Assembly (NCBI RefSeq): GCF_000212375.1
Contig: NC_015501.1
Span: forward strand, 1,674,001-1,738,000
From: Porphyromonas asaccharolytica DSM 20707
GTDB lineage: Bacteria > Bacteroidota > Bacteroidia > Bacteroidales > Porphyromonadaceae
Direction: 5' to 3'
DNA length: 64,000 nucleotides
This document shows positions 2,038 to 55,484 of this stretch, one piece after another. Under the pieces are notes generated by a model. It saw only the letters and a list, made by a program, of their open reading frames with translations, was not told the origin of the DNA and did no database searches. A program made the position numbers and the translations under genes. Each line of letters starts with the position of its first letter. Within the stretch, counting starts at the first letter, position 1.

Positions 2038-2427
2038 ATGAAAGAAGAAAAAAGTACCCGAGGACGAAAGGGATATCCCCTAGATTTCAAGTGGAGAGTC
2101 ATTGACGACCTCCTAGCCACAGGTGACAGTATTGCCACCACCAGCCAGCGCTACGGCATTACCACACGCACCATTCGAAATTGGTTGCGTACCTTTGGTG
2201 TAGAGTTACCCAACCAAAGCAGCAGTAGCACTATGAGCAAGACAAACAAAAACAAAGACGTAGATCCAGAGTACGCAGAACTCAAGCGTGAAAACGCTCG
2301 TCTCAAAGCAGCCCTCTTCCAGGCTGAGAGCAAGGCATTAGTCAACAAGACACTACTCGAAGTGGTCTTGAATCGCTACCACATTGATCTAAAAAAAAGA
2401 CCGATTTGCAGCCGTGAGACAGCTTGA
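2038..2427 (+). CDS. IS3-family transposase OrfA (helix-turn-helix subunit)
   Basis: This 129-residue protein binds the ends of the IS element. The N-terminal half has a transposase_8-type helix-turn-helix (about residues 10-55, with TTSQRYGITTRTIRNWLRTF), followed by a Q/S/N/K-rich linker and a charged coiled-coil segment, YAELKRENARLKAALFQAE, at about residues 79-97, which probably mediates oligomerisation. The ATG lies 18 bases inside the left inverted repeat. Its 3' end crosses a run of eight A (2391-2398) and overlaps OrfB by 14 bases. The IS3 family normally makes an OrfAB fusion by frameshifting at such a site. Confidence 0.92.
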   Translation: MKEEKSTRGRKGYPLDFKWRVIDDLLATGDSIATTSQRYGITTRTIRNWLRTFGVELPNQSSSSTMSKTNKNKDVDPEYAELKRENARLKAALFQAESKALVNKTLLEVVLNRYHIDLKKRPICSRETA

Positions 2428-3469
2428 GTCCGCCAAAGTGAGAGATCAAAAGCTCTCCATAACCTACCTTTGTCAGCTGTTGGAAGTCAGCCGCAAAGGC
2501 TACTACAAGCACACCTTCACCGAGCAAGACGAAGATGTCAAAGTAGCCTCCGTCCTACACTATTGCCAGTATGTGCGCGGTCAGCTCCCCAAAGCAGGCG
2601 TAGACACCCTCCAGCAGTGTGCCAACGAATACTTCAAAGGGACCTTTCAAGTAGGTCGAGACTGGCTGTACAAAGTGTTAGGAGCCAACAACATGCTGCT
2701 GAGAAGTCGCAAGCGCAAGCGTCCACCCCAGACGACCAATGGAGTGGTTAATCACGGCTTCCAAGACCACCTGAACACCATCCCTAAGTACATCGCTACC
2801 GACCATTGCCGGCTCACCGTCTCAGACATAACCTACGTCAAATGTTTAGGGGGCTTCGCATATCTATCCCTGACGATGGACGCTTATAGCCGCATCATCA
2901 CCGGCTTTGACCTGCAGCCCACGCTCTCCACAGAGGGTCCCTACAACGCACTAAGACAGACCGTTGACTTCTATCAGAAGCATGGCTTTGACCTCAAAGG
3001 GCTTATCTTCCATAGCGACCGAGGCTGTCAATATGTCTCCAAGCAGATGACCGACTACGAGGCCAGCCTAGGCATCGTAACCAGTGTCACCCAGACCGGT
3101 AACCCCCTTCACAACGCTATGGCTGAGCGACTTAACGGGATCATCAAGAACGACTGGCTTTACAACTTCGAGGATAAGCCCATAGATGAAGTTCGAGAGA
3201 TCCTCTCTCAAACGATTGCTCTCTATAACACAGCGCGACCTCATCGAGCCATCAACAAGAAGACTCCGATGCAGATGCTCATACCAGATTACCCCAACCC
3301 TCTAACATCACAACCCTCTAAGAACCAGATAGCTAAGAACAATTCTCCCAAAGCTCTGAGCCTCAAATCTCCGAGCTCATGCCGCTTAACTCCACACAAA
3401 GACCTATCTTTGTGTACCTCCGCAGTAAAAACGACCCCAAGTCGTGTACCCCAGCAGGAGCAAAACTAA
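2414..3469 (+). CDS. IS3-family transposase OrfB (DDE integrase catalytic subunit)
   Basis: OrfB carries the strand-transfer domain. Within 351 residues there is an N-terminal HTH_21-like part (SITYLCQLLEVSRKGYYK) and an rve integrase core with the acidic triad in VSDITYV, HSDRGCQY and NAMAERLNG, ending with the family signature NTARPHRAINKKTPMQML. About 60 basic, serine-rich residues follow it, longer than usual. The first in-frame start is a GTG at 2414; the frame is open back to 2393, just past a TAA at 2390-2392. OrfB is in the +1 frame relative to OrfA, so a fusion needs a +1 or -2 shift or transcript slippage on the A8 run. Confidence 0.92.
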   Translation: MRQLESAKVRDQKLSITYLCQLLEVSRKGYYKHTFTEQDEDVKVASVLHYCQYVRGQLPKAGVDTLQQCANEYFKGTFQVGRDWLYKVLGANNMLLRSRKRKRPPQTTNGVVNHGFQDHLNTIPKYIATDHCRLTVSDITYVKCLGGFAYLSLTMDAYSRIITGFDLQPTLSTEGPYNALRQTVDFYQKHGFDLKGLIFHSDRGCQYVSKQMTDYEASLGIVTSVTQTGNPLHNAMAERLNGIIKNDWLYNFEDKPIDEVREILSQTIALYNTARPHRAINKKTPMQMLIPDYPNPLTSQPSKNQIAKNNSPKALSLKSPSSCRLTPHKDLSLCTSAVKTTPSRVPQQEQN

Positions 3470-3561
3470 CAAATGAGTACACTCACAGGACTAACAAAAA
3501 TAGCCCGTGTACCATCTCAGTAATACCTCCCCAACTGTGTACTTTTTTCAGGAAGAGGACA

Positions 3562-3760
3562 TTCTCCACGGAGCTATTTTTTATTTTCCACGTGGGCGTG
3601 AATCATTTCCTCCGAAGTTTCATTTGATTCCTCCGAAGTTTTATTTCTTCTCCACGTGGAGAATTTTCTTTTTCCACGTGGATATTTCAAAATCCCCAGG
3701 TGGGGATTTTTTCGTCCCAATGCGGATGGGACAAATTCGTCCCATAAGTATGGGACGACT
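3562..3760. repeat. 22-bp repeat array A, main part
   Basis: Successive units of 21-22 bp carry cores TCCACGGA (3566), CCACGTGG (3588), CCTCCGAAG (3609), CCTCCGAAG (3630), CCACGTGG (3652), CCACGTGG (3674) and CCCCAGGTGGGG (3694), each followed by an A/T-rich spacer. Two further palindromic units, GTCCC...GGGAC (3714-3732 and 3739-3756), follow at about 25-bp spacing. The ACGT cores on either side of the two CCGAAG units are 64 bp apart. No coding frame explains the sequence. Confidence 0.85.
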
Positions 3761-4139: not shown

Positions 4140-4262
4140 ACCGTATAACAATGATACGTGTAACCAGTTGTAGGGCTCGCGCGTCCGTTGTATCAAAGGT
4201 TACAGCGTTGTGGTTTTGATGGGCTCAGACGCCCTCTTAGTAAACACGAGCCGTGCGTCCTT
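4140..4262. repeat. Degenerate dispersed element, copy 1 (GTGTAACC...CGTGCGTCC)
   Basis: By eye this stretch aligns along about 110 bases with 32030-32145: both run ACGTG(T/C)AACC, TTGTA, GCGTCCGTTGT(A/G)TCAAAGG, ACAGCG, a T-rich patch, and end with GAGCCGTGCGTCC or GAACCGTGCGTCC. A partial third copy is at 3796-3850. The copies are non-coding. The right edge reaches the 3' end of the neighbouring minus-strand regulator gene. Confidence 0.65.
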
Positions 4263-12373: not shown

Positions 12374-12556
12374 ATAGCCACGTGGAAAACGTTAATTTTC
12401 CACGTGGCTATTTTTCATTCTCCACGTAGGGGAAAAACATTTCCTCCGAAGTTTCGTTTGATTCCTCCGAAGTTTCATTTCTTTCCTACGTAGGGATTTT
12501 TCATTTCCTACGTAGGGATTTAAAAATCTCCACGTAGGGATTTCCTCCCTTCTGAA
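12374..12556. repeat. 22-bp repeat array B
   Basis: Units with CCACGTGG cores (12378, 12400), CCACGTAGG (12422), two CCTCCGAAG units (12443 and 12464), CCTACGTAGG (12485, 12507) and CCACGTAGG (12530), each with an A/T-rich spacer. The ACGT cores are 22 bp apart within each block and 64 bp apart across the two CCGAAG units (12424 and 12488), as in arrays A and C. It lies between recF and the serC promoter. Confidence 0.85.
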
Positions 12557-12670
12557 GGAAAATGTGCTGCAAGGCATAAGAGACCCTGCATACAACGCAT
12601 CAGACCTGAGTCTCCAAGCACTTCAAAACAGGAATTATCCGAACATTAGCACAAGGAACCGTCGAAATAG

Positions 12671-16342: not shown

Positions 16343-16617
16343 CTACTCTTATGTGGCAATCGCTACTCAAGATTGCTCAGTAAGCATTGGGAGATGGAAA
16401 ACAAGCTACACTATATGCTGGATATGCTTTTTAGGACGGTCTACTCTACCAAGAGAACGTGCAGCGCAACTCAGGGCATGAACATCATGAACAGAATAAA
16501 TCTGACTGTAATTCAAAGGCTTAAAGACGAGCTCAAAGCTTCATCAACACTTCATTTGAAGAAAAAACTAGCATAGATGACCTCAAAGGAAATTTTCAAA
16601 ATGAATTTATACTGCGT
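16343..16617. other. Gene-free stretch upstream of thrS
   Basis: No supported gene. An 83-codon open frame (16325-16576) begins inside the preceding terminator and shows no family features; it may be chance or a remnant. No repeats were noticed. Confidence 0.5.
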
Positions 16618-16653
16618 CAGCCCTGAGGGTTGAGAGCTTTTTTTGTACCTTTG
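16618..16653 (+). promoter_or_regulatory. Hairpin with T-run followed by -7 box for thrS
   Basis: A small hairpin CAGCCC TGA GGGTTG (16618-16632) leads into seven T (16638-16644), then TACCTTTG at 16646-16653 matches the -7 consensus. A -33 TTG at the right distance is not clear. Predicted start of transcription about 16660, 68 bases before thrS. Confidence 0.5.
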
Positions 16654-32025: not shown

Positions 32026-32148
32026 CGAAACGTGCAACCCTTTGTAAGGACGCACCTTGGTGCGTCCGTTGTGTCAAAGGGAACAGCGTCTGTGTTTTAA
32101 CGGGGACGGATGCACGAACCGTGCGTCCCTACACAGGGTTACTCGTCT
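32026..32148. repeat. Degenerate dispersed element, copy 2 (inverted GGACGCAC repeats)
   Basis: Contains GGACGCACC TT GGTGCGTCC (32049-32068, a perfect small hairpin), then TTGTGTCAAAGG, and ends GAACCGTGCGTCCCTAC. It aligns by eye with 4140-4262. Arms GGGTTAC near 32021 and GGGTTACTCG near 32136 bound it. It directly precedes array C, as a related copy follows array A. Confidence 0.65.
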
Positions 32149-32172
32149 CTAATCTCTAACCTCTAATTCGAT

Positions 32173-32362
32173 ATCCACGTAGATATTTTTCATTCTCCAC
32201 GTGGATATTTTTCATTCTCCACGTGGATATTTTTCATTCTCCACGTGGAGACGAAATGATTCCTCCGAAGTTTTATTTGATTCCTCCGAAGTTTTATTTC
32301 TCGCCTACGTGGAGATTTTTTATTTGCCACGTGGGGATTTGAGAATTTCCACGTGGGGATCA
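32173..32362. repeat. 22-bp repeat array C (most regular copy)
   Basis: Nine units: ACGT cores at 32177, 32199, 32221 and 32243, each exactly 22 bp apart, then two CCTCCGAAG units (32262 and 32283), then ACGT cores at 32307, 32329 and 32351, again 22 bp apart. The gap across the CCGAAG pair is 64 bp. Spacers are A/T-rich, often ATATTTTTCATTC. It occupies the gap between two divergently transcribed genes. Confidence 0.9.
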
Positions 32363-32446
32363 GCTTTTTTGTGGCAAAAGCGTATCGAGGATAAGAGATT
32401 CTGTTCATAAGGCACTAGTGAGTGGAATATGCGGAAGGTGGCATAT

Positions 32447-39990: not shown

Positions 39991-40093
39991 AGCAGCCCCT
40001 TGCTACAATAAGGTGCTGTCAAAGAGCCTTCATATCATGCTGAACTTGTGACAGATACGAGTTTCAAAAGTTGTTGCCCTTTTGGATTTTTTT

Positions 40094-40137
40094 AGTTCCA
40101 ACGGAGGAACTTTTTAGTTCCAAGGGAGGAACCGTTG
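40094..40137. repeat. 22-bp repeat array E (TTCC...GGAA type, two units)
   Basis: Two adjacent 22-bp units, each AGTTCCAAxGGAGGAAC plus a spacer (40094-40115 and 40116-40137). Cores are imperfect palindromes GTTCC...GGAAC. Located between pepT and a lipoprotein gene. Confidence 0.75.
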
Positions 40138-42064: not shown

Positions 42065-42163
42065 TTCCAAAAAGCTTCCAAGCTTGGAAAAATAAATTTC
42101 CAAGGGAGGAAACTTTCTTTTCCAAGGGAGGAAATGTTTCGTTCCAACAGAGGAAAGGAAGCT
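42065..42163. repeat. 22-bp repeat array F (TTCC...GGAA type, four and a half units)
   Basis: A half unit (42065-42075) and four full 22-bp units at 42076, 42098, 42120 and 42142. The first core TTCCAAGCTTGGAA is a perfect palindrome; the next are TTCCAAGGGAGGAA twice and TTCCAACAGAGGAA. It lies between convergent genes. Confidence 0.85.
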
Positions 42164-51351: not shown

Positions 51352-51427
51352 AGTTCCTCCCTTGGAACTAAAAAGTTCCTCCGCTGGAACTAAAAAGTTC
51401 CAAACGGGGAACTGTTTTTGGAACTCG
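51352..51427. repeat. 22-bp repeat array G (TTCC...GGAA type, inverse orientation)
   Basis: Units at 51352-51373, 51374-51395 and 51396-51417, each 22 bp, with AGTTCC...GGAACT cores and AAAA or GTTT spacers; a partial unit follows. Relative to arrays E and F the first two units read as the reverse complement. Located between convergent genes. Confidence 0.8.
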
Positions 51428-55192: not shown

Positions 55193-55331
55193 TACCAAAT
55201 AGTCGGTAATCTATTGTATATCAAAGCAATGTGAACGTTCAGCATCCATCGTTCGAGGCCTATCATGCCTCCTCCCTTCGATTAGTTAAATTCTGAATAC
55301 TATAAGTAGAGAGATGCGCCCAGATACTGAT

Positions 55332-55484
55332 TTCTCACGAGGAAATTGAAATTCTTCAGGGAGCAATCGGCAAATTCCTCCGAAGTTTCATTTCATTCTT
55401 CCGAAGTTTTATTTGACTCTTCCGATCTATTTCGGCTTTTCTCGGTAGAGATTTGAGATTTCCTAGTGAGTTATTTGGCAAATA
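55332..55484. repeat. 22-bp repeat array D (degenerate copy)
   Basis: Two clear units with CCTCCGAAG (55377-55385) and CTTCCGAAG (55398-55406), 21 bp apart, flanked by weaker units in the same register (TTCTCACGAGG, CTTCAGGGAG, TTCCGATC, TTCTCGGTAGAG, TTCCTAGTGAG). ACGT cores have been lost. It lies between the ABC operon and gdhA. Confidence 0.65.

What the first reader, a model, noticed from the sequence alone, without database searches (positions are those of the whole stretch)
32173..32362. Strict 22-bp phased palindrome array with a fixed two-unit centre
Seven cores containing ACGT are exactly 22 bp apart in two blocks, split by two TTCCTCCGAAG units so that the blocks are 64 bp apart. 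The same plan, with the same 64-bp gap, occurs at 12374-12556 and in the array interrupted by the IS (3590 and 3654). The period equals about two helical turns, so all cores lie on one DNA face. This could be a MITE-like minisatellite (P. gingivalis has a MITE family with short tandem repeats, BrickBuilt, as I recall), a phased protein-binding array, or a structured RNA. The invariant centre argues against random slippage growth and suggests selection or spread as a unit.
Basis: partly seen in the sequence, partly recalled or inferred. Interest (0 to 1): 0.75.

Follow-up and report, generated by a model that had tools for sequence, protein, structure and literature searches.

The report
Evenly spaced mobile palindrome arrays
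A Porphyromonas chromosome carries at least 126 copies of a rigid 170-base array of palindrome-like sites, spread by small transposons but spaced far more evenly (about every 17 kb) than chance, which suggests either a chromosome-organising element or mobile DNA that keeps its distance from itself.

Summary
The array is real, one of at least 126 in this 2.19-Mb genome. The usual plan is rigid: three cores 22 bp apart, two TTCCTCCGAAG units, three cores, inner cores 64 bp apart. The two-unit centre is common, not invariant: my searches needed a unit pair, one single-unit copy turned up by its ends, and 45 of 64 P. uenonis arrays count three. At least two unrelated miniature transposons carry it: one with 26-bp ends shared with six near-identical ISL3-type insertion sequences and 8-bp target duplications, the other with CAGGGCTGACGCAT ends and 10-bp duplications. 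Seventy-six arrays show neither end; homology stops at the outer cores. In P. uenonis most cores are CCTAGGT-type on the same lattice. Most surprising is spacing: CV 0.49 against 0.99 random and 0.93 intergenic-only, with avoidance between differently borne arrays; a second genome agrees. Best reading: a transposon-borne phased protein-binding array that excludes another nearby, possibly kept as a chromosomal anchor. Binding protein and function are unproven. It is not BrickBuilt.

The parts
32171..32361 (+). array of the finding: 4 left cores + 2 centre units + 3 right cores
32260..32291 (+). two TTCCTCCGAAG centre units, 21 bp apart
32362..32430 (+). right arm related to family A (left side not assigned); end approximate
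12374..12541 (+). second array, plan 3+2+3
12542..12641 (+). family-A right arm, ending in what I read by eye as a decayed inverted-repeat end (about 12615-12641); no array in this gap in G018 or G013
3562..3708 (+). third array, cut at its left end by an IS3-family insertion sequence
55308..55475 (+). fourth array, degenerate, no ACGT core; both flanks conserved in P. uenonis (L233); extent approximate

Best explanation
The feature is a mobile, non-coding array of eight (sometimes nine) two-fold-symmetric sites on one face of the helix, about 22 bp apart. Miniature transposons of at least two unrelated kinds have carried it into intergenic gaps (shown). I infer that a dimeric DNA-binding protein of the host or of a helper element occupies the sites, and that an occupied array keeps a second array from being inserted or kept within roughly 10 kb, in the manner of transposon cis-immunity or of selection for well-spaced chromosomal anchors. 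The result is a quasi-regular ladder of arrays about every 17 kb. Shown: lattice, copy number, vectors, target duplications, spacing, avoidance between arrays of different vectors, conservation concentrated in the sites. Inferred: the bound protein, the exclusion mechanism, and any benefit to the cell.
For: Spacing of 126 arrays has CV 0.486; none of 10,000 random sets was as low (mean 0.99); 5 intervals are under 5 kb, 31 expected; the longest gap is 44 kb, 94 kb expected. Placement restricted to modelled intergenic gaps gives CV 0.93, 0 of 5,000 as low. G018: 93 arrays, CV 0.64 against 0.98, 0 of 10,000. Avoidance crosses vector types: 4 of 50 A/B arrays have an array of the unassigned class within 5 kb, against 17 after rotation (p 0.003). 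A control repeat shows no such order (CV 0.85 for 19 merged loci, 1.30 unmerged). In the 68 aligned unassigned arrays identity is 0.81 inside and 0.39 just outside, and columns in sites average 0.89 against 0.76 in spacers. Most cores differ together between species. Vectors.
Against: No binding protein was identified. The P. uenonis spacing signal is weak (p 0.026, part of the contigs and a capped list). Taken alone, B arrays are not significantly regular (CV 0.87, p 0.38) and A arrays only slightly (p 0.045). Unassigned arrays are less alike (0.81) than A (0.89) or B (0.95) arrays, so they may simply be older. Cores within a subfamily share descent, so their uniformity is partly copying, and core2 of P. 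uenonis often keeps another sequence (CCGTAG in 27 of 58). Core1:core2 covaries as a hairpin (z 10), which a pure double-strand site does not require. The array list misses single-unit arrays.
Confidence: 0.42

Rival explanations
1. A purely selfish miniature transposon family. The 22-bp sites are binding sites of a transposase or its regulator, as at the ends of Mu or Tn7 (recalled), and give cis-immunity; the spacing is a by-product and the cell gains nothing.
For: Two vectors with inverted repeats and target duplications; species-specific subfamilies. Passages read report that Mu cis-immunity in vivo is strongest around 5 kb and decays over 5-25 kb (PMC7350765), which resembles the deficit here (5 intervals <5 kb, 21 <10 kb).
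Against: Avoidance acts between arrays borne by different vectors, so it would have to be array-specific rather than end-specific. The matching transposase found is ISL3-type, for which I know of no target immunity (recalled). 76 of 126 arrays keep the array without recognisable ends. A-type ends also occur without any array, so the array is not needed for movement.
Confidence: 0.28
2. Old arrays are thinned by recombination or instability: close copies delete or rearrange, leaving a spaced set.
For: A P. uenonis locus has two arrays about 3 kb apart where the own genome has one (L240); gene order around arrays is much rearranged.
Against: Deletion should remove direct pairs only, but below 5 kb both direct (1) and inverted (4) pairs are few. 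It does not explain the lack of long gaps. Another intergenic repeat clusters freely.
Confidence: 0.13
3. A structured RNA or transcription terminator: core1 and core2 form a hairpin followed by T residues, with similar hairpins for the other strand.
For: Core1:core2 covariation z=10.1 and compensatory pairs; strong folds, z -6.2 to -9.3 in four foldings of 149-nt stretches of two arrays.
Against: 46 of 126 arrays lie between divergent genes and only 19 between convergent genes; the two window arrays fold differently; no Rfam family reached its threshold in the window; it does not predict even spacing.
Confidence: 0.1

Closest known systems
BrickBuilt (P. gingivalis minisatellite within a MITE; PMC4596501)
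   Same: Same genus; tandem short repeat inside a non-coding inverted-repeat element; intergenic; many copies lack one or both ends.
   Different: 23-nt unit in variable number (1 to 22.8), 19 copies in ATCC 33277, ends of IS5 type such as GAGACCTTTGCA. Here: usual plan 3+2+3 on a 21-22-bp lattice, at least 126 copies, other ends, two vectors, even spacing.
REP/BIME elements with RAYT transposases (PMC2817692, abstract start and passages seen)
   Same: Intergenic palindromic repeats in more than 100 copies; regularly spaced palindromes within an element; proposed protein-binding and chromosome role.
   Different: Here inverted-repeat vectors leave target duplications; a set plan of sites; even spacing along the chromosome. 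RAYT linkage was not tested.
ISL3-family insertion sequence (six 1,658-bp copies in this genome, 99.8-100% identical)
   Same: The 26-bp ends of family-A elements match these copies; 8-bp target duplications at family-A elements.
   Different: The family-A element carries the array and no transposase.
Mu / Tn7 transposon ends with cis-immunity
   Same: Several phased ~22-bp sites (recalled) and exclusion over 5-25 kb (Mu).
   Different: No Mu- or Tn7-type transposase or ATPase was searched for; the array lies inside other ends. Likeness of behaviour only.

Membership tests
[quoted passage not shown]
   Family-A end on the left in 19, right in 24, both in 15 of 126 arrays, at a threshold equal to the highest of 252 shuffled flanks. 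Second ends: at least one in 15 of 20 B arrays, 1 of 30 A arrays and 0 of 76 unassigned arrays.
[quoted passage not shown]
   A: at the best offset of a scan, 7-bp repeats (<=1 mismatch) in 5 of 7 tested copies against 0 for mismatched pairs; 3 of 7 at 8 bp. Perfect 8-bp repeats at 1452532 and 1493713 and at 980715. Second vector: 6 of 26 distinct array-bearing pairs by script, 10 bp as read. Unassigned arrays: none detected.
[quoted passage not shown]
   Family A only: six 1,658-bp copies with the same ends, ORF with DDE_Tnp_ISL3 (E 1.6e-34). None seen for the second vector among the loci held; no genome search was made for one.
BrickBuilt | GAGACCTTTGCA-type ends (IS5) | tested here: not met
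   Ends are GGCTAATTCCTATTTTGAGG or CAGGGCTGACGCAT against Table 2 of PMC4596501.
BrickBuilt | 23-nt unit in variable number | tested here: not met
   22/21-bp lattice at set offsets. The 23-nt sequence itself was not available to me for comparison.
REP/BIME | palindrome with a GTAG/GTGG-type head and a linked RAYT gene | not tested
   Head not scanned for; no RAYT search made. The definition comes from passages of PMC2817692.
Mu/Tn7-like ends | Mu/Tn7-type transposase and AAA+ partner, 5-bp duplication (recalled) | tested here: inconclusive
   The duplications seen are 8 and 10 bp, not 5; no search for the proteins was made.

The most novel reading that the evidence does not exclude
The arrays are a chromosome-wide architectural system: mobile phased-site modules, passed between unrelated transposon vectors, that a DNA-binding protein uses as anchors or domain boundaries about every 17 kb, with position in the chromosome, rather than sequence of the vector, under selection.
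Probability: 0.27. Interest if true: 0.92.

Novelty: new variant of a known kind. Interest (0 to 1): 0.72.

Why it matters
A transposon-borne array that keeps nearly regular distances, across two vectors and in at least two genomes, makes either natural transposition immunity or selection for evenly spaced chromosomal sites directly measurable. If the second holds, it would be a case of mobile DNA laying out bacterial chromosome structure.

Tried and rejected
BrickBuilt membership: rejected on ends and unit plan. Rfam family: 0 matches at the curated thresholds in the window. Fixed RNA structure: only core1:core2 covaries strongly; the two window arrays fold differently. Terminator of convergent genes: context does not fit. 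Orientation polarity along the chromosome: weak in G000 (runs test p 0.046), absent in G018 (p 0.61). A first impression that reverse copies stop late in the genome came from truncated listings and was dropped.

Recombination between arrays as the cause of rearrangement: of 64 P. uenonis arrays, 14 join flanks of two different own-genome arrays, 5 match one array, 25 have one matched flank and 20 none. Of the seven with both flanks within 450 bp of an own array, five join different arrays, and each of these pairs a flank of same polarity with one of flipped polarity. Simple recombination through arrays would not give that, so I claim rearranged gene order only.

First reading of the window array-3 site in G013 as empty (my notebook) was wrong: it holds a degenerate array on the other strand (L263). 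The site lacks an array only in G018. Exact insertion borders from empty sites were not resolved; the alignment was poor. A target duplication for the 76 unassigned arrays: none found.

On recheck I found that a pair search cannot see single-unit arrays and that core2 of P. uenonis often differs from the other cores; my first wording claimed more. Adding the one single-unit array leaves the spacing CV at 0.485.

Full report
WHAT IS THERE. The window lies in a single-contig genome of 2,186,370 bases. From its size and relatives I recall it as Porphyromonas asaccharolytica; no tool named it. Pair patterns for the TTCCTCCGAAG centre gave 82 forward and 78 reverse matches and none to the reversed control. 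These cluster into 126 arrays. Anchored on the first centre unit, ACGT cores stand at -61, -39, -17, +47, +69 and +91 in 94, 96, 113, 107, 82 and 91 of 126 arrays. Dyad centres of the cores lie at -59.5, -37.5, -15.5, +48.5, +70.5 and +92.5; with the two centre units (about +5 and +26) the eight sites form one lattice of about 22 bp, roughly two helical turns. The array at 32173 has one extra left core.

LIMIT OF THE LIST. The searches required a pair of centre units, so single-unit arrays are absent from it. One came to light through its ends: a 280-bp element at 980715-980994 with four cores, one centre unit and three cores, again eight sites, between perfect 8-bp repeats. In the own-genome stretches held for the array analysis, no single centre unit lies away from the listed arrays. 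Three groups of two or three cores do, each 0.5-2 kb from a listed array; I read them as array halves split off by insertions. Those stretches are biased to array neighbourhoods.

WHERE. Contexts of the 126 arrays: divergent genes 46, codirectional 35 and 24, convergent 19, one flank not called in 2. Background gene pairs without an array: 29 divergent of 215. Sixteen of 126 overlap an open frame of at least 100 aa, called mechanically.

RELATIVES. Of 40 relatives searched at up to 3 mismatches, 4 of 24 same-genus genomes and 0 of 16 others from the order carry the centre pattern.

VECTORS. Family A: elements of about 279 or 340 bp with 26-bp inverted ends; left end in 19, right end in 24, both in 15 of 126 arrays. 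Target duplications: at the best offset of a scan, 5 of 7 tested copies share a 7-bp flanking repeat with at most one mismatch, against 0 for mismatched pairs, and 3 of 7 at 8 bp; two listed copies have perfect 8-bp repeats. The same 26-bp end bounds six 1,658-bp copies that are 99.8-100% identical; the ORF examined is an ISL3-type transposase (PF01610, E 1.6e-34; NCBIfam ISAon1 and ISL3 models below their cut-offs). A-type ends also occur without an array (a unit of roughly 170 bp in L301 and one of 65 bp in L302). Second vector: ends CAGGGCTGACGCATNATAA. Of 26 distinct array-bearing end pairs in the loci held, 24 from P. uenonis, 6 show a long flanking repeat by script, which I read as 10 bp. 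By profile, 30 own arrays have at least one A flank, 20 at least one B flank, 76 neither; at least one second-type end is near 15 of the 20 B arrays, 1 of the 30 A arrays and none of the 76. In those 76, homology falls to background just outside the outer cores and no target duplication was found. In the 68 of them that could be aligned, identity is 0.806 inside and 0.387 in the 20 bp outside each edge; sites average 0.89 and spacers 0.76. A and B arrays are more alike (0.894 and 0.948), so the unassigned ones may be older. Either the vector ends have decayed while the array was kept, or there is a third, duplication-free way of moving.

AGE AND TURNOVER. Between the matched blocks around the window's second array lie 292-300 bp here but 47 bp in G018 and 49 bp in G013, and no centre pair was found in the stretches fetched there. 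For the third array the figures are 395 bp here and 25 bp in G018; G013 holds a degenerate array on the other strand in that gap (L263). The fourth, degenerate array has both flanks conserved in P. uenonis (L233). Of 128 flanks of 64 P. uenonis arrays, 63 match the flank of an own array and 36 do so within 450 bp of the array in both genomes, 21 with the same and 15 with flipped polarity. So the same gaps are often used in both species, largely with different elements; part of this must follow from arrays being confined to intergenic gaps.

CORES CHANGE TOGETHER. By type, 50 of 64 P. uenonis arrays are CCTAGG-type, 2 CCACGTGG and 12 other. Of 58 that could be examined by position, ACCTAG stands at core1 in 35, core2 in 15 and core3 in 47, and its reverse complement CTAGGT at core4 in 41, core5 in 47 and core6 in 44; core2 is CCGTAG in 27. 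In the own genome 84 of 116 two-unit arrays have at least three CCACGTGG and 28 more are ACGT-type. The P. uenonis array is thus largely an inverted repeat of sites around the centre. Within the own genome core1 and core2 covary as a hairpin (z 10.1); other core pairs, self-pairing included, reach at most 4.8 (116 arrays; shuffling does not correct for relatedness).

EVEN SPACING. Intervals of the 126 arrays: mean 17.35 kb, CV 0.486. None of 10,000 random sets was as low (mean 0.99); 5 intervals are below 5 kb against 31 expected. Confining random sites to intergenic gaps (model: 20 gaps of the window tiled along the genome) gives CV 0.93, 0 of 5,000 as low. The longest gap is 44 kb against 94 kb expected. 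A simple exclusion model of 10 kb with 10% leak comes near (CV 0.54, longest gap 54 kb). In G018, 93 arrays up to 1.97 Mb (later reverse copies were not listed) give CV 0.64 against 0.98, 0 of 10,000. In G013, 61 within-contig intervals give CV 0.74 against 0.91, p 0.026; these are from contigs 1-9 of a listing capped at 100 of 120 matches, and I left contigs 10-16 out. Split by vector: A CV 0.73 (p 0.045), B 0.87 (p 0.38), neither 0.77 (p 0.007). Between classes, 4 of 50 A/B arrays have an array of the unassigned class within 5 kb against 17 after rotation (p 0.003), and the median nearest distance is 14.8 kb against 8.0 kb (p 0.006). A control repeat (30 matches, 19 merged loci) has CV 0.85, or 1.30 unmerged. 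The avoidance thus seems to belong to the array, not to one set of ends.

HOW IT MAY WORK. A protein on the array could block new insertion nearby, as cis-immunity does for Mu: strongest near 5 kb and fading over 5-25 kb (passages of PMC7350765). Or selection could keep arrays as evenly spread anchors. The data do not separate these; strain-level insertions would. Loss of close copies by deletion is less likely, since inverted close pairs are scarce too (4, against 1 direct, below 5 kb).

LITERATURE. BrickBuilt (abstract, section 5, and the first part of section 7 read) is a different element. Searches for P. asaccharolytica, P. uenonis or Porphyromonas with repeat, palindrome or MITE terms and for evenly or regularly spaced bacterial repeats or immunity listed nothing, by title and start of abstract, that describes these arrays or their spacing; two searches showed 12 of 28 and 8 of 13 papers. 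PMC5771137 was seen in passages only. Only open-licence papers are held.

Noticed in passing
window 2038-3561: An IS3-family insertion sequence lies at the left end of the first array. The same left flank occurs at four own-genome arrays (this one included) and inverted at the right of a fifth; 6 of 12 G018 copies listed also run on into array sequence.
   Followed up: partly
window 40089-40132, 42086-42156, 51352-51413: Other 22-bp-period arrays of TTCC...GGAA sites with different spacers; perhaps a wider class on the same lattice.
   Followed up: no
window 16367-16626: A repeat of about 260 bp found many times in G018; it sits at a synteny breakpoint with both G018 and G013.
   Followed up: no
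window 32040-32140 and 4140-4260: GTAGGGACGCACG...CGTGCGTCC repeat; 13 of 19 merged genome loci lie within 2.5 kb of an array, where 28% of the genome lies, so arrays may sit in repeat islands.
   Followed up: partly
flanks of 41 of 126 arrays: Three or more TCTAAY/TTAGAR motifs of a seven-base repeat close to the array on one side.
   Followed up: no
own genome 1638128/1638425; G013 C1:114560/114859; G018 351868/352165: Two arrays in opposite orientation about 300 bp apart in three genomes; orthology not tested.
   Followed up: no
G000 980715-980994 (L300): Family-A element with 4 cores + 1 centre unit + 3 cores and perfect 8-bp repeats; a core seems to stand in for a centre unit, keeping eight sites.
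   Followed up: partly
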